Part shown: in pieces, positions 895 through 9,135 of the stretch
Layout: every line of letters starts with the position of its first letter
Numbering within the stretch: the stretch's first letter is position 1
NCBI GenBank assembly: GCA_017421885.1
Contig: JAFOHJ010000322.1
Span: forward strand, 1-9,834
Length of the DNA: 9,834 nt
Reading direction: 5' to 3'
Source of the DNA: Clostridia bacterium
Lineage (GTDB): Bacteria; Bacillota_A; Clostridia; Oscillospirales; Butyricicoccaceae
The notes under the pieces: model-generated
The model's database searches: none
What the model saw: only the letters and a program-made list of their open reading frames with translations
What the model was told of the DNA's origin: nothing
Made by a program: the position numbers and the translations under genes

Positions 895-1533
895 ATGGGA
901 AACATGATAACCAATAACGGCTACAGATACGAGCTGCTGGGAGAGGGAAAGATTAAGGTCTACAGCTACACCGGCGGCGGAGATGTCGCCGTGCCTGATA
1001 CTTTCGACGGCTATGATGTTGCCGAGATCAGTCAGCTCACCTATACAAACTGCGGCGTTCAGCGCCTTACCCTCAGCGATAAGCCCCAGAAGCCCATGAT
1101 AATCTCGGTCTGCTGGGATCTCAGAACCATCGCTCTGCCCGACGGCCTGGGCGTAGGCCTTGCCCCCAGAGTCATGAATTGCCCCATCTTCGGCGAGTTC
1201 GAGGTGGGCGAGGGCAGCGAGAATTATGTTCTGCGTGACGGTGTTCTGTTCAGCAAAGACGACAGCATCCTCTACCGTATGCCCTGCGCCTGCGGGATCG
1301 AGCATTATGTCGTACCCGATGGGGTAAAGGAGATCGCGCCCCATGCCTTCAACGGATGCTATAACCTTCGCAGCGTAAAGCTGCCCGAGGGTCTGAGAAG
1401 AATCGGCTTCTCGGCATTCGAGAACCTAAAGGATATGGCCGAGGTGGTCATTCCCCGCGGATGCGAGGCCGACCCCGACTGCGGCCTGTTCCCCGAGCAT
1501 GATTTTGACGACGACGAGGACGAAAGCTATTAA
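895..1533 (+). CDS. Leucine-rich-repeat (BspA/LRR_5-like) protein, cytoplasmic
   Basis: A 212-residue protein with the repeat pattern of BspA-type (LRR_5) leucine-rich repeats: short strands such as DVAVPDTFDGYDVAEIS, LRTIALPDGL, YVVPDGVKEIAPHAFNGC and LRSVKLPEGLRRIGFSAF. The clearest repeats lie at about residues 30-50, 78-88 and 138-185. The C-terminus (about 190-212) is strongly acidic, with a run of Asp/Glu. There is no signal peptide, anchor or sorting motif, unlike many BspA-like surface proteins, so it is probably intracellular. The start is set by GGAGG at 883-887, seven bases before the ATG. LRR_5 modules generally bind proteins, so a scaffold or binding role is plausible, but no partner is evident. 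The gene appears to stand alone and ends at a bidirectional terminator shared with the convergent gene. Confidence 0.75.
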   Translation: MGNMITNNGYRYELLGEGKIKVYSYTGGGDVAVPDTFDGYDVAEISQLTYTNCGVQRLTLSDKPQKPMIISVCWDLRTIALPDGLGVGLAPRVMNCPIFGEFEVGEGSENYVLRDGVLFSKDDSILYRMPCACGIEHYVVPDGVKEIAPHAFNGCYNLRSVKLPEGLRRIGFSAFENLKDMAEVVIPRGCEADPDCGLFPEHDFDDDEDESY

Positions 1534-1537
1534 TAAC

Positions 1538-1562
1538 AAAACCGCCCCTTAAGGGCGGTTTT
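1538..1562. terminator. Bidirectional intrinsic terminator between convergent genes
   Basis: The stem AAAACCGCCC (1538-1547) pairs with GGGCGGTTTT (1553-1562) around CTTAA, with A-runs and T-runs on the two sides so that it can end transcripts on both strands. It separates the LRR gene (+) from the membrane-protein gene ending at 1566 (-). The stem is nearly the same as in the terminator at 3861-3889. Confidence 0.9.
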
Positions 1563-1565
1563 TGA

Positions 1566-1967
1566 CTATTCTTCGCTATGCTGATGATATGGGGCTATAT
1601 ACAGTCCCCTTGTATTGTTGTAGGTGTATACCTGCCGATGCGGCTCGCCGGTTTTCCTTGTGACGGCAACCGAGTAGCCGCCCGAATAGAACCAGTCTTT
1701 AAAATAAGTTATGCTTTCTATATCATCCTGAATACCGTTTTCGGTTATCATGGCATTTATGCTCTTTTCGGCTCTGTACCTTTCAAGAGGTAGCTCGAGA
1801 ATGAAAAATGAGATCATTACGAACAAAGCAGCAAGCAGAATGGATCTTCGGACTTTTGGCTGAGAAACGACTCTTTTAACAGGAGGCAGCTGAGTTATGA
1901 CGAGGATGGCGATGGCCATGATTAATACGCCATACTGCAGCCAGAAATCTTTCCCTGTCAGAAACAT
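1566..1967 (-). CDS. Two-helix membrane protein coupled to a secreted hydrolase gene
   Basis: A 133-residue protein without a family I can name. Two membrane segments (about residues 11-26 and 41-58) are joined by a short basic loop (PPVKRVVSQPKVRR). A soluble C-terminal domain of about 70 residues follows (from ERYRAEKSINAMI to the end), rich in Tyr. The basic inter-helix loop suggests, by the positive-inside rule, that the loop is cytoplasmic and the C-terminal domain faces outward. The ATG lies one base after the stop codon of the upstream hydrolase gene, with GGAGA just inside that gene's end, so the two are translationally coupled. Sharing a message with a secreted cysteine hydrolase suggests a partner, anchor or immunity role, but this rests on context alone. 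It ends at the shared terminator 1538-1562. Confidence 0.65.
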   Translation of the reverse strand: MFLTGKDFWLQYGVLIMAIAILVITQLPPVKRVVSQPKVRRSILLAALFVMISFFILELPLERYRAEKSINAMITENGIQDDIESITYFKDWFYSGGYSVAVTRKTGEPHRQVYTYNNTRGLYIAPYHQHSEE

Positions 1968-1968
1968 T

Positions 1969-2691
1969 TTATATATCTCCTGAATTGTAAGTAATCTGAC
2001 GACGAAGTCCGGGAATCGATGTGGTCAAATTAGTTGGACCTATTAAGCCATAAGTGTATTCTTCTGCGACTCCAGCTTCATAGTATGCTTGATATACAAT
2101 TTTAGAACAATATGTTTTATCTGTGCTAAACAAAGAACCAGTTAGGGAATACGGCACATCGGTTCCGTAATAAGTGGATTTAGCATAAACACCTGCAGTA
2201 GTTGCTGCACTTGAACTTGTATGACGGTATATTTTTGTCCATGAATCATCTTCTCTATTTGTAAAAGTAGTATGCCAATTACTAAGAGTAACTGCGGAGG
2301 GAGTTTCGTTTGGAACAATATGTAAGATACGGAAAGAAGCTCCTACAGTAATGACTATTCCAGCATGTCCCACCATTGCAGTCGAAATTGACTTGTTTGT
2401 TATAAATACATCGCCTAGCTGCATTGAATAAGTACTATTGGGAGAAATAGAACTATCATATACAAGCTCAAAGTCATCAGAAGAAGATAACTGGTTCATA
2501 AGAGACTGCTGTTCAATGATAAACTGATACCAAGTATCAAAAGAGATACTTTCGTCAATAGTACCATTTTCAACATGGGTGGCATATTCTTCGTAGTAGA
2601 ATGATAATTCGTTTTTGGTTGAAGCAACGGCATTAACAGAAAATGAAAGAATAAATGTGATGATTAACACGAGTGAATATAATTTTTTCAT
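1969..2691 (-). CDS. Secreted YiiX/YycO-like permuted papain-fold cysteine hydrolase
   Basis: A 240-residue protein with a clear Sec signal peptide: MKK, then a hydrophobic core (residues 4-17), with likely cleavage after AVAS (about residue 24). The mature part has the pattern of the circularly permuted NlpC/P60-papain group (YiiX/YaeF/YycO, formerly DUF830), where the catalytic His precedes the Cys. LGDVFITN (about 92-99) is followed by VGHAGIV with His109, and TYCSKIVYQAY carries Cys195. Family members hydrolyse peptide or thioester/amide bonds in the cell envelope; the substrate here is unknown. AAAGGAGC (2697-2704) fixes the start and a strong promoter lies at 2742-2770. By eye, its base composition is much AT-richer than the WYL, Spx-operon or barnase-operon genes, which hints at separate origin. 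It shares a transcript with the membrane protein at 1566-1967. The fold is fairly sure; the activity is inferred. Confidence 0.72.
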   Translation of the reverse strand: MKKLYSLVLIITFILSFSVNAVASTKNELSFYYEEYATHVENGTIDESISFDTWYQFIIEQQSLMNQLSSSDDFELVYDSSISPNSTYSMQLGDVFITNKSISTAMVGHAGIVITVGASFRILHIVPNETPSAVTLSNWHTTFTNREDDSWTKIYRHTSSSAATTAGVYAKSTYYGTDVPYSLTGSLFSTDKTYCSKIVYQAYYEAGVAEEYTYGLIGPTNLTTSIPGLRRQITYNSGDI

Positions 2692-3916: not shown

Positions 3917-4117
3917 TTGGCTCTCCCTCTGGGAGAGCTGGCACCCGAAGGGTGACTGAGATTTGGCACCAATGGCTTCCCCCTACGTGGGGAAGCTGTC
4001 GGCCTTGTGCCGACTGATGAGGGGTCGCGAAGCGCTTTGCAGGTAGCCGGATGCAGGTCACCTCATCCACCGCCGTGCGGCGGTCCCCCTTCCCCGTCAA
4101 GGGGAAGGCATGGCCAA
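3917..4117 (+). repeat. Composite hairpin-rich repeat, copy A
   Basis: About 200 bp made of consecutive hairpins: 3921-3927/3931-3937, 3942-3946/3950-3954, 3975-3982/3989-3996, 3998-4003/4009-4014, 4069-4074/4079-4084 and 4088-4095/4101-4108. GATGAGG (4016-4022) and CCTCATC (4061-4067) also pair across a 38-nt centre. The core 3974-4109 (136 bp) recurs in inverted orientation at 8947-9082 with about eight differences. It lies between the WYL terminator and the 3' end of a convergent operon. It has no coding content: the open frames crossing it are products of its low stop density. It may be a small non-autonomous mobile element or a structured intergenic repeat. I see no convincing target-site duplication or long terminal inverted repeats. 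Confidence 0.85.
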
Positions 4118-5571: not shown

Positions 5572-6009
5572 ATGACATCGACCGCGAGAAAGATAGAAAA
5601 GAAATATATCCCCATGCCCACATGGGAGCTGACACCTCAGGCACTTACCGAGCTTATCCGTTTCCGTCACGAGCGTTTTCCCTCCGAGCTGATCCATGTC
5701 ATTCCTCTGACCCGCGATTTCCGCGTGGTCTTGCTGGACTACAGCCACTTTATCGGCCGCAAGGCACGAAATATACTGCTTCTCAGAATGGCCTCGGAAG
5801 GCATTTATGACGAAGCTCTGCTTACCGAGCTGTGCGAACGCGCAGGAACAGCCGTCCTCCGCGAGGCCCTTAAGATGGCCCGCCGCAGAGGCGAACCGGC
5901 CGTTATCGCCGTTATTTCCGAGCATTTTCGCGAAAGCGTCGAGGAAGACCCTCTTCCCGGCGATTTCTGGCACAGAACATGGGAGAAGTTTTGCGGACTT
6001 GCCTATTAA
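5572..6009 (+). CDS. Hypothetical cytoplasmic protein, 145 aa
   Basis: I do not recognise this protein. It is soluble, with no signal peptide or membrane segment, and rich in charged residues. There is a basic N-terminus (residues 1-12), a TWELTPQALTELIRFRHERF stretch, a hydrophobic strand-like stretch (RVVLLDYSHFI), and an Arg-rich helical region ending in ALKMARRRGEPAVIAVI at about 103-120. The composition suggests a mixed alpha/beta or helical protein. The start is supported by AAGGAG nine bases upstream and a TGn-TATAAT promoter. A second gene follows after 54 bases with no terminator between them, so it is probably co-transcribed with the alpha/beta hydrolase and possibly with the barnase and barstar genes. 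A weak promoter in that gap cannot be ruled out. Confidence 0.65.
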   Translation: MTSTARKIEKKYIPMPTWELTPQALTELIRFRHERFPSELIHVIPLTRDFRVVLLDYSHFIGRKARNILLLRMASEGIYDEALLTELCERAGTAVLREALKMARRRGEPAVIAVISEHFRESVEEDPLPGDFWHRTWEKFCGLAY

Positions 6010-6063: not shown

Positions 6064-6810
6064 ATGAAAACATTTATCCCCTCTTCGCAGGCCGGACGAA
6101 ACATCCCCTGCGACTGCCGCATAAGCGGCAATGAAAGGAAGGTGTGCATCATCGCCCACGGCTTTGCCAGCAGCAAGCAGAGCGGCACGGCTCAGATGAT
6201 GCTCGATCACCTCGCCTCCTTCGGCGTGGGCGGCATTGCCTTCGATTTTCCCTGCCACGGCGAGAGCGGGGCAGAGTTCGGCGCACTGACCGTCGACAGC
6301 TGCCTCAGCGATATGAGAGTTGTCGAGCTTTACGCAAAGACGCTGGCGAAGGATGCCGAGATAGTCTATTTCGGTTCGTCCTTCGGCGCATATATCACCC
6401 TCTGCCACATCTGCTCATGCCCGCATGAGGGAAAAAGAGCCTTCCTCAGATGTGCCGCTGTCGACATGGATCACGCCTTTGACGATGTCATGGATACCAT
6501 CGAGGGCCAGCTTGAAACACTCGGCTATGGCATATACGACCCCGGCTTCGGTGATGGACTTAAGCTGTCACGCGGGTTTTTCGACAGCCTCAGGGGACGT
6601 TCGGTGTTTGATATGGAGCTGCCCGAGGGCGCTGAGATCCGCATGATCCACGGCCTTGCCGATGACGTGGTCGACCCCGAGGCGGCAAAGAGCTATGCCG
6701 CAAAGATCGGCTGCCCCATCTATCTCATTCCCGGCACGGGCCACTCGATCGACAACGAAGAAGGCATCAGTACTCTCCGCGAGAAGACAGCAGAGTTCTT
6801 TGGGAGGTAA
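6064..6810 (+). CDS. Alpha/beta hydrolase
   Basis: A 248-residue serine hydrolase of the alpha/beta fold, without a signal peptide and so cytoplasmic. The elements are in canonical order: oxyanion-hole HGFASSK (residues 32-38), DFPCHGESG (61-69), nucleophile elbow GSSFG with Ser106, the acid in IHGLADDVVD (Asp200, or Asp201), and the base in GTGHS (His227). HGF plus DFPCHGESG resembles the esterase/BAAT-like and YqiA/FrsA-like subgroups that act on small esters or acyl compounds, but the substrate cannot be read from sequence. The ATG is preceded by CGGAGAA. It lies 54 bases after the unknown 145-aa gene and six bases before the barnase-like gene, whose ribosome binding site overlaps this gene's stop, so it is in one operon with the toxin and inhibitor genes. 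Confidence 0.88.
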   Translation: MKTFIPSSQAGRNIPCDCRISGNERKVCIIAHGFASSKQSGTAQMMLDHLASFGVGGIAFDFPCHGESGAEFGALTVDSCLSDMRVVELYAKTLAKDAEIVYFGSSFGAYITLCHICSCPHEGKRAFLRCAAVDMDHAFDDVMDTIEGQLETLGYGIYDPGFGDGLKLSRGFFDSLRGRSVFDMELPEGAEIRMIHGLADDVVDPEAAKSYAAKIGCPIYLIPGTGHSIDNEEGISTLREKTAEFFGR

Positions 6811-6816
6811 GGGAAT

Positions 6817-7458
6817 ATGAAGTTTAACAAGAGCTTTTTCACAAGAGCCGCGGCCCTTGCGCTGGCTCTGATAATGACATTCAGCTTCTCGGGATGCTCG
6901 GAAGAGGATCAGGAGCTGGTAAATGCCGTAGTCGACATTGCCGATGCCGTTCTGAGCGAATCGGAATCGGAAGACGGCAGCGAGAGTTCGGACGTTCAGC
7001 AGAGTGAAGAACCGGAGGAACCCTCAGATAAACATACCGAGGAAATTCCGCAGGAAGAAGAGCCTGAGCCTCAGGAGCCCCAGCAGGAAGAACCCCAGGA
7101 GCAGCTCCCTCTTATCGACGAGGACGGCATATATACATCCATGGAGGATGTTGCCGACTATCTTATCGCATACGGAAGGCTGCCCTCGAACTTTATCACC
7201 AAGAAAGAGGCACGCAAGTTGGGCTGGGAAGGCGGTGGACTTGACCGCTATGCCGAAGATAAGTGCATCGGCGGCGACACCTTCGGAAACCGTGAGGGCC
7301 TTTTGCCCAACGGACATAAATATATCGAGTGTGATATCGACACCCTCAATCAGGATTCACGCGGACCTAAGCGCATTGTTTTCTCGGAGGATCTCTCGCT
7401 GATATACTACACCGATGACCATTACGAGAGCTTCACTCTCATTTACGGAGAAGAATAA
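6817..7458 (+). CDS. Lipoprotein-anchored barnase-type ribonuclease
   Basis: A 213-residue protein in three parts. The first is a lipoprotein signal: basic MKFNK, hydrophobic core, and lipobox FSGC with lipidated Cys27. The second is a linker at about 48-97, very rich in Glu, Pro, Gln and Ser. The third is a guanyl-specific RNase domain at about 105-210. That domain matches barnase closely: VADYL, RLPSNFITKKEARKLGW, IGGDTFGNREG, YIECDI, and TDDHYESFTLI. By alignment from memory, the catalytic residues are present: Glu171 (barnase Glu73), Arg186 (Arg87), His202 (His102), and also Lys129 (Lys27) and Arg182 (Arg83). It should cleave single-stranded RNA after G on the outer face of the membrane. 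GGGAGG overlaps the end of the hydrolase gene. The inhibitor gene follows three bases after the stop. The anchor is unlike the freely secreted Bacillus enzyme. Confidence 0.93.
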   Translation: MKFNKSFFTRAAALALALIMTFSFSGCSEEDQELVNAVVDIADAVLSESESEDGSESSDVQQSEEPEEPSDKHTEEIPQEEEPEPQEPQQEEPQEQLPLIDEDGIYTSMEDVADYLIAYGRLPSNFITKKEARKLGWEGGGLDRYAEDKCIGGDTFGNREGLLPNGHKYIECDIDTLNQDSRGPKRIVFSEDLSLIYYTDDHYESFTLIYGEE

Positions 7459-7461
7459 GAA

Positions 7462-7767
7462 ATGATAAAAGCTATACTGGACTGCGAAAAGCTGGCGGGA
7501 GGCCACGACAAGGCCCATGCCTACCTCAAGCAGGAGCTTGAGCTTCCCGAATACTACGGCATGAATCTTGATGCCCTTTATGACTGCCTTTCCTCCCATC
7601 CCGGCACCATCGAGCTGCTGCTGAGAAATGCATCCAGACTTGAAGAGAGTGCCTATGCCAAAAAGATCGTCGAGACCTTCTGCCAGGCGGCGGCGGTCAC
7701 CGGCGGCCATGTCATAATGGAATATGATGCACCTGTGATAGAGGAAATGGAAGTTTCGGAAGAATAA
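7462..7767 (+). CDS. Barstar-type ribonuclease inhibitor
   Basis: A 101-residue cytoplasmic protein of the barstar family. LKQELELPEYYGMNLDALYDCL (residues 22-43) matches the barstar core, including the two acidic residues that plug the RNase active site in the Bacillus pair (Asp35 and Asp39 there, Asp37 and Asp41 here). Trp38 of barstar is Tyr40 here. Length and order fit the family (about 90 residues), plus a slightly longer acidic tail. It should bind and block the RNase encoded just upstream, protecting the producing cell before export. Its ATG lies three bases after the RNase stop, with GGAGAAG inside the end of that gene, so translation is coupled and the inhibitor is made whenever the enzyme is. 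The operon ends at the terminator 7774-7804. Confidence 0.93.
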   Translation: MIKAILDCEKLAGGHDKAHAYLKQELELPEYYGMNLDALYDCLSSHPGTIELLLRNASRLEESAYAKKIVETFCQAAAVTGGHVIMEYDAPVIEEMEVSEE

Positions 7768-7773
7768 TAAAAT

Positions 7774-7804
7774 AAAAAGGCTCCCCATGTGGGGAGCCTT
7801 TTTT
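7774..7804. terminator. Bidirectional terminator between the barstar and transporter genes
   Basis: AAAAAGGCTCCCC (7774-7786) pairs with GGGGAGCCTTTTT (7791-7803) around a 4-nt ATGT loop, with T-runs or A-runs on both sides. It lies between convergent genes and can end both transcripts. Confidence 0.93.
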
Positions 7805-8897: not shown

Positions 8898-9135
8898 CCC
8901 TCTTTTGAAAGAGGGAGGCAGGCGAAGCCTGACGGGTGTTTGGCCAGCCTTCCCCTCGATGGGGAAGGGGGACCGCCGCACGGCGGTGGATGAGGTGAAC
9001 TGCGTCCAGTTACCTGTAAAGCGCTTCGCGACCCCTCATCAGTCGGCACAAGGCCGACAGCTTCCCCACGGAGGGGGAAGCCATTTTGCCAAACCTCAGT
9101 CACCTTCGGTGACAGCTCCTTTCAAAAGGAGCCTT
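8898..9135 (-). repeat. Composite hairpin-rich repeat, copy B (inverted relative to copy A)
   Basis: The core 8947-9082 (136 bp) is the reverse complement of copy A at 3974-4109 with about eight differences and no length change. The module at 9092-9135 (hairpins 9099-9104/9108-9113 and 9115-9122/9125-9132) corresponds to 3917-3960 of copy A, with the stems changed in both arms. Copy B has two extra hairpins on its other side, 8898-8915 and CAGGC-GAA-GCCTG at 8919-8931, which copy A lacks in this form. It occupies the gap between the transporter promoter and the protease gene's 3' end. No gene is present. Confidence 0.85.

What the first reader, a model, noticed from the sequence alone, without database searches (positions are those of the whole stretch)
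6817..7767. Barnase tethered as a lipoprotein through a Glu/Pro spacer, with its barstar
The RNase domain carries the catalytic set of barnase (Glu171, Arg186, His202, Lys129) and barstar follows three bases later with the two key Asp residues. Bacillus barnase is freely secreted; here a lipobox (FSGC, Cys27) would fix it to the outer membrane face, with about 70 residues of mostly acidic, Pro-rich spacer reaching into the wall. A cell-surface RNase could act on RNA in the surroundings, on competitors in contact, or be released by proteolysis. The anchored form is not one I know to be described.
Basis: partly seen in the sequence, partly recalled or inferred. Interest (0 to 1): 0.7.

Follow-up and report, generated by a model that had tools for sequence, protein, structure and literature searches.

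The report
Membrane-tethered barnase with its barstar
This gut bacterium appears to hold a barnase-type RNA-cutting enzyme on its membrane by a lipid anchor and a floppy acidic arm, next to the gene for its inhibitor; among the related gene pairs examined this anchored form is common, although the textbook enzyme is freely secreted.

Summary
Window 6817-7458 (+) encodes 213 residues: a lipobox signal (FSGC, Cys27), a predicted helix (29-50), a disordered acidic Glu/Pro arm, and a complete barnase domain (Lys129, Arg159, Glu171, Arg182, Arg186, His202). A barstar with both key Asp starts three bases later. It is not peculiar to this window: of 168 distinct barnase loci collected here (74 of them ranked by likeness to the query), 120 have a lipobox, 40 another hydrophobic N-terminus, and 155 carry barstar on the same strand. 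Lipobox and other hydrophobic N-termini replace each other repeatedly on a poorly resolved tree, which suggests that tethering itself is kept. No description of an anchored barnase turned up in ten paper searches. Best reading: an envelope-zone RNase that digests RNA arriving from outside, perhaps for phosphate and nucleoside salvage, with barstar guarding the cytoplasm. Anchoring rests on sequence alone; the salvage role is inferred, and my own test of it was inconclusive. A new variant of a known kind, moderately interesting. Side finding: in 41 of 43 tandem barnases among 230 listed homologues, exactly one domain is catalytically dead.

The parts
6817..6897 (+). Signal sequence with lipobox FSGC; Cys27 codon at 6895-6897
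   Evidence: lipobox pattern; Cys27 invariant in 17 of 17 chosen homologues
6898..6966 (+). Residues 28-50: stretch with a helix predicted at 29-50 right after the lipobox Cys
   Evidence: AlphaFold2 model, pLDDT about 66; amphipathic against shuffles p 0.04 in the window
6967..7125 (+). Residues 51-103: acidic Glu/Pro-rich disordered arm
   Evidence: pLDDT under 50 at 51-83; spacer net charge -29 over 80 residues
7126..7455 (+). Residues 104-213: barnase-type RNase domain with Lys129, Arg159, Glu171, Arg182, Arg186, His202 (stop codon 7456-7458)
   Evidence: PF00545, PDB by sequence, fold, catalytic columns
7447..7453 (+). Shine-Dalgarno-like GGAGAAG for barstar inside the end of the RNase gene
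   Evidence: read; not tested
7462..7767 (+). Barstar, 101 aa, no signal sequence seen; Asp37 and Asp41
   Evidence: PF01337, PDB by sequence, conserved columns
7774..7803 (.). Terminator-like hairpin of 13 pairs between barstar and the convergent transporter gene
   Evidence: pattern scan, listed for the minus strand; the stem is palindromic
6064..6810 (+). Upstream alpha/beta hydrolase gene, six bases before the RNase gene; probably the same operon
   Evidence: same order in L030 and L031, but this neighbour family lies beside barnase in only 3 loci

Best explanation
A Sec-exported lipoprotein RNase. The signal is cut before Cys27, the Cys is lipidated, and the barnase domain folds outside the membrane on a disordered acidic arm. 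The arm reaches at most about 53 x 0.36 = 19 nm plus about 3 nm of helix (arithmetic), usually several nm, so the enzyme stays in the membrane and inner-wall zone instead of diffusing away. There it cuts RNA at G into small pieces that phosphatases and nucleoside carriers can use. Barstar, made beside it and lacking a signal, blocks RNase that stays in the cytoplasm. Shown by sequence: domains, catalytic residues, lipobox, gene order, conservation. Inferred: lipidation, surface location, RNase activity, inhibition, the salvage role.
For: Lipobox in 120 of 168 loci and another hydrophobic N-terminus in 40; of the 8 without, 4 are cut by a contig end. Lipobox against other hydrophobic N-terminus needs 17 changes on the tree, while the secreted set needs 2, as if the anchor type were free but anchoring kept. 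Genomes G548 and G847 hold a lipobox copy (L145, L147) and a secreted-looking copy (L157, L156) side by side as paralogues. Catalytic Glu73, Arg83, Arg87 and His102 in 134 of 134 locus proteins, Lys27 in 130. RNase domain dN/dS 0.12. Barstar beside it in 155 of 168. Secreted balifase is induced by phosphate starvation (PMC5021464, abstract and passages).
Against: No experiment and no SignalP. The window lipobox fails the stricter G+LPP-type pattern. Nucleoside-carrier family PF02608 is no commoner in barnase genomes (20 of 27 against 50 of 72, p 0.81); 5'-nucleotidase family PF02872 is somewhat commoner (12 of 27 against 15 of 72, p 0.024), but not if only anchored barnases count (10 of 24 against 17 of 75, p 0.11), with no correction for kinship. 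No salvage gene is a fixed neighbour. The RNase domain is acidic in 90 of 101 lipobox proteins, unlike basic Bacillus RNases.
Confidence: 0.5

Rival explanations
1. A contact-dependent antibacterial toxin displayed on the surface, with barstar as immunity protein.
For: Toxin-then-inhibitor order with barstar within 30 bases in 147 of 168 loci; barnase domains do occur in polymorphic toxins with barstar as immunity (PMC3482391, passages); a toxin-like barnase is present in the nearest genome (L029).
Against: No delivery domain in the window protein; purifying selection on the RNase; RNase 62% but barstar 32% identical over 1081 pairs of 47 genome-drawn loci, so the enzyme is not the part that diversifies; short arm.
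Confidence: 0.15
2. Not anchored in practice: the signal is cut by signal peptidase I, or the enzyme is shed by proteolysis of the arm, and it acts as a secreted RNase like Bacillus barnase.
For: Disordered arm is an easy protease target (inference); strict G+LPP-type pattern not met.
Against: Cys27 invariant in 17 of 17 chosen homologues while the arm drifts; 118 of 120 lipobox members fit the PS00013-type pattern and 0 of the 48 others do (the same kind of pattern made the class, so this is partly circular).
Confidence: 0.15
3. A gate against RNA entering the cell, for example genomes of RNA phages, placed at the membrane on purpose.
For: Tethering close to the membrane; SNIPE shows that a membrane-bound nuclease can cut entering phage DNA (PMC13190303, abstract).
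Against: That system cuts DNA; I know of no RNA phage tested on these hosts; no defence neighbours recur. The padloc library was not searched.
Confidence: 0.08
4. An ordinary intracellular toxin-antitoxin pair.
For: Two-gene layout with an inhibitor.
Against: Export-type N-terminus in 160 of 168 loci.
Confidence: 0.02

Closest known systems
Bacillus barnase, binase and balifase (secreted N1/T1 guanyl-preferring RNases)
   Same: Fold, catalytic residues and barstar partner
   Different: Type I signal and propeptide, free in the medium, basic; balifase's one-operon layout with its inhibitor was called unique (PMC5021464, abstract), whereas barstar lies within 30 bases in 147 of 168 loci here
Polymorphic toxins with Tox-Barnase and Imm-Barstar (PMC3482391, passages)
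   Same: Barnase domain, exported, inhibitor gene downstream
   Different: No delivery or processing domain and no repeats in the window protein. That paper calls simple barnase-barstar pairs widely distributed; in the 12 of 14 places shown it does not mention a lipobox on them
Surface nucleases of mycoplasmas (PMC4807054, abstract; PMC12115388, abstract in listing)
   Same: Nuclease held on the cell surface, thought to feed nucleotide salvage
   Different: Unrelated nuclease folds by their description, no barstar, wall-less cells
SNIPE membrane-bound anti-phage nuclease (PMC13190303, abstract)
   Same: Nuclease kept at the membrane
   Different: Cuts phage DNA during injection; different system

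Membership tests
Barnase / PF00545 RNase | Pfam model over curated cut-off and barnase fold | tested here: met
   62.5 bits against cut-off 24; TM-score 0.88
Barnase / PF00545 RNase | Catalytic Lys27, Glu73, Arg83, Arg87, His102 | tested here: met
Barnase / PF00545 RNase | RNase activity with preference for G | not testable with these tools
   no assay
Barstar (PF01337) | Pfam model and Asp35/Asp39 | tested here: met
   49.2 bits against 23.4; Asp37, Asp41
Barstar (PF01337) | Glu76 contact | tested here: not met
   Gln75 in the window (alignment)
Barstar (PF01337) | Inhibits its RNase | not testable with these tools
   no assay
Bacterial lipoprotein | PS00013-type lipobox pattern (recalled) | tested here: met
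Bacterial lipoprotein | Stricter Gram-positive G+LPP-type pattern (recalled, coded loosely) | tested here: not met
   Phe at -3; 32 of 120 lipobox members share it
Bacterial lipoprotein | Lipidation and membrane location | not testable with these tools
   no SignalP, no experiment
Polymorphic toxin system | Delivery, processing or repeat domains before the toxin domain | tested here: not met
   only PF00545 found in the protein; two NCBIfam matches far below cut-off
Freely secreted barnase type | Type I signal without lipobox | tested here: inconclusive
   lipobox pattern present, cleavage type not predicted

The most novel reading that the evidence does not exclude
Across Bacillota the usual barnase is a tethered envelope enzyme and the textbook secreted form is the derived exception. 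The tether is selected for its own sake: it holds an RNase in the membrane and inner-wall zone, where it acts as a mouth or a gate for RNA, with anchor chemistry freely exchangeable.
Probability: 0.35. Interest if true: 0.65.

Novelty: new variant of a known kind. Interest (0 to 1): 0.45.

Why it matters
Barnase and barstar are a model protein pair, yet what barnases do in nature is little explored (my judgement). If many natural barnases of gut Clostridia sit on the cell, they are envelope enzymes for outside RNA and not diffusible ones. That can be tested directly, and it would change how a large set of 'ribonuclease' genes in gut genomes is read (7998 of 8000 scored candidates passed E 0.001).

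Tried and rejected
Viral or plasmid origin: scans of viral contigs with the alignment (64 pattern stretches) and with tandem protein P0003 (49) gave none that encodes a relative; in the plasmid collection 9 records match, each under 60% identity and none covering 80% of the query.

Conserved partner other than barstar: in all-against-all BLAST of neighbours of 134 loci, barstar stands at +1 in 122; the next family (transporter-like) reaches 17 loci at scattered positions; the window's hydrolase family reaches 3. An alpha/beta hydrolase-barnase fusion (L120) looked like a link, but the two hydrolases do not align (E 0.68).

Helix after the lipobox as a family-wide feature: 23 of 100 lipobox proteins beat shuffles at p under 0.05, about 5 expected by chance; not family-wide.

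Disulphide Cys150-Cys172: Cys at barnase position 74 in 131 of 134, at position 50 in 87 of 134; not a strict pair.

Salvage genes: inconclusive.

Limits of the counts. The 168 loci are the window, 93 from genome searches (59 lipobox, 28 other hydrophobic, 6 none; 81 with barstar) and 74 ranked by likeness to the query (60, 12, 2; 73 with barstar). Duplicates by the last 100 residues and one spurious fragment (L111) were dropped. Each genome search gave at most 30 loci, best first, so weak barnases are under-sampled. The 'secreted' set of 7 (L151-L153, L156-L159) was picked by eye after classification, so that none of them is called lipobox is a weak control. 'Other hydrophobic' was not separated from cleavable signals except by a crude A-x-A test (11 of 40 positive, including 3 of those 7). 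Searches used earlier, smaller sets (135, 134, 119 or fewer). Of the 120 proteins listed, 106 were called lipobox by a looser pattern; some tandem ones (P0014, P0018, P0019, P0030, P0044) end in ALA and may be type I signals. The tree has 110 columns for 164 rows; starred branches force only 4 changes of the lipobox label.

Full report
WHAT IS THERE. The protein at 6817-7458 (+) is, in order: a signal with lipobox FSGC (Cys27), a helix predicted at 29-50, an acidic disordered arm, and a barnase domain at 104-213. The domain matches PF00545, binase/barnase by sequence and by fold, and keeps Lys129, Arg159, Glu171, Arg182, Arg186 and His202. Barstar starts three bases after the stop. A Shine-Dalgarno-like GGAGAAG lies inside the end of the RNase gene (read), and a 13-pair hairpin follows barstar. 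An alpha/beta hydrolase gene ends six bases upstream; the order 145-aa protein, hydrolase, barnase, barstar is the same in L030 and L031.

WHOSE IT IS. The window's own assembly is not held; the nearest genome, G001, shares 27% of sampled words. G001's barnase contig is 6794 bases long, the length of JAFQVZ010000265.1, a goat-colon Clostridia metagenome assembly whose barnase is 95% identical to the window's. So the window comes from a relative of that organism (inference).

HOW COMMON. The protein search scored 8000 candidates, of which 7998 passed E 0.001; 120 are listed. Genome searches found PF00545 in 27 of 99 near relatives, 57 of 391 of the class, 80 of 394 of the order and 19 of 398 of the phylum; the sets overlap. 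From these and the 80 best of 583 loci in named genomes I collected 168 distinct loci: 120 lipobox, 40 other hydrophobic N-terminus, 8 without (4 cut by a contig end); barstar on the same strand in 155, within 30 bases in 147. In the 93 genome-drawn loci alone: 59, 28 and 6, barstar in 81. Genomes G548 and G847, of the same phylum, hold a lipobox copy and a secreted-looking copy each.

WHAT IS KEPT. Among 134 locus proteins: Glu73, Arg83, Arg87 and His102 in 134, Lys27 in 130. In 101 lipobox proteins the arm measures 22-138 residues (median 71) and is net acidic in 100; the RNase domain is net acidic in 90, against +2 for barnase. The arm's length and sequence drift while acidity stays. Arg59, a barstar contact in Bacillus barnase (PMC8837141, passages), is Tyr in 103 of 134; the window is among 17 with Arg.

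EVOLUTION. On a tree of 164 domains the lipobox label needs 18 changes against 39.1 for shuffled labels; lipobox against other hydrophobic N-terminus needs 17; the secreted set needs 2 and lies among anchored ones. The tree warns of few columns, is midpoint-rooted on a long branch, and its starred branches force only 4 changes, so direction and number are not shown. Against L030 the RNase domain has dN/dS 0.12 and barstar 0.12; against L031, 0.12 and 0.37, with saturated dS. Over 1081 pairs of 47 genome-drawn loci the RNase averages 62% identity and barstar 32%, the RNase higher in 1075.

MECHANISM. Lipidation, location and activity are inferred from the anatomy. By arithmetic the arm reaches about 22 nm at full stretch and much less on average; Gram-positive walls are 20-40 nm (recalled), so the enzyme should work in the inner wall zone. 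I favour RNA salvage because secreted balifase is induced by phosphate starvation (PMC5021464, abstract and passages) and because the protein has no delivery parts. My own tests were inconclusive: PF02872 in 12 of 27 barnase genomes against 15 of 72 others (p 0.024), 10 of 24 against 17 of 75 for anchored ones (p 0.11), PF02608 20 of 27 against 50 of 72 (p 0.81). The contact-toxin rival is weakened, not excluded. A gate against RNA is the boldest rival; SNIPE (PMC13190303, abstract) shows the principle for DNA.

LITERATURE. Ten searches were answered. One paper holds barnase, lipoprotein and lipobox together: PMC3482391. In the passages shown lipoboxes are named for Amoebophilus effectors and Imm65, and no anchored barnase is mentioned; its last part is not held. 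The one paper with barnase and signal peptidase II, PMC8294519, treats barnases as Sec-secreted (passages). The library is open-licence PMC only, so 'not described' is limited to these searches.

SIDE FINDING. Of 230 listed homologues, 43 have two barnase domains. In 41 exactly one lacks Glu73 or His102 (37 the first, 4 the second); in 2 both are intact; Arg83 and Arg87 are kept in all 86 domains. Arg59 is present in 31 of the 41 dead domains and 1 of the 41 live ones. The 41 form 11 clusters at 70% identity, so they are not independent, and P0075 and P0135 may have incomplete first domains. A dead, more basic barnase that may bind RNA or barstar beside a live one deserves its own study. I did not see the genes around these proteins.

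Noticed in passing
43 tandem proteins among P0001-P0230 (not in the window): In 41 of 43 two-domain barnases exactly one domain lacks Glu73 or His102; the dead one keeps Arg59 in 31 of 41, the live one in 1 of 41. Possibly a pseudo-enzyme that binds RNA or barstar.
   Followed up: partly
L029 (G001:C351), 1480-2406 minus strand: The nearest genome has a second barnase at the end of a 308-aa helical protein without a signal, followed by a barstar and preceded by three small ORFs, one with a WXG100 match below cut-off: perhaps a type VII-type effector.
   Followed up: partly
L120 (1480-2616 minus strand) and L121: Fusion of a hydrophobic N-terminus, an alpha/beta hydrolase (PF12695, called for L120) and barnase, with barstar after it.
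   Followed up: partly
window 3971-4109 and 8947-9085: Inverted 139-base repeat, 94% alike; 32 full or partial matches in the nearest genome: a dispersed repeat family.
   Followed up: partly
window 5572-6009: 145-aa protein with no Pfam match over cut-off, kept upstream of hydrolase, barnase and barstar in L030 and L031.
   Followed up: no
window Cys172 (barnase position 74): Cys directly after the catalytic Glu in 131 of 134 locus proteins, Ala in Bacillus barnase; unexplained.
   Followed up: no
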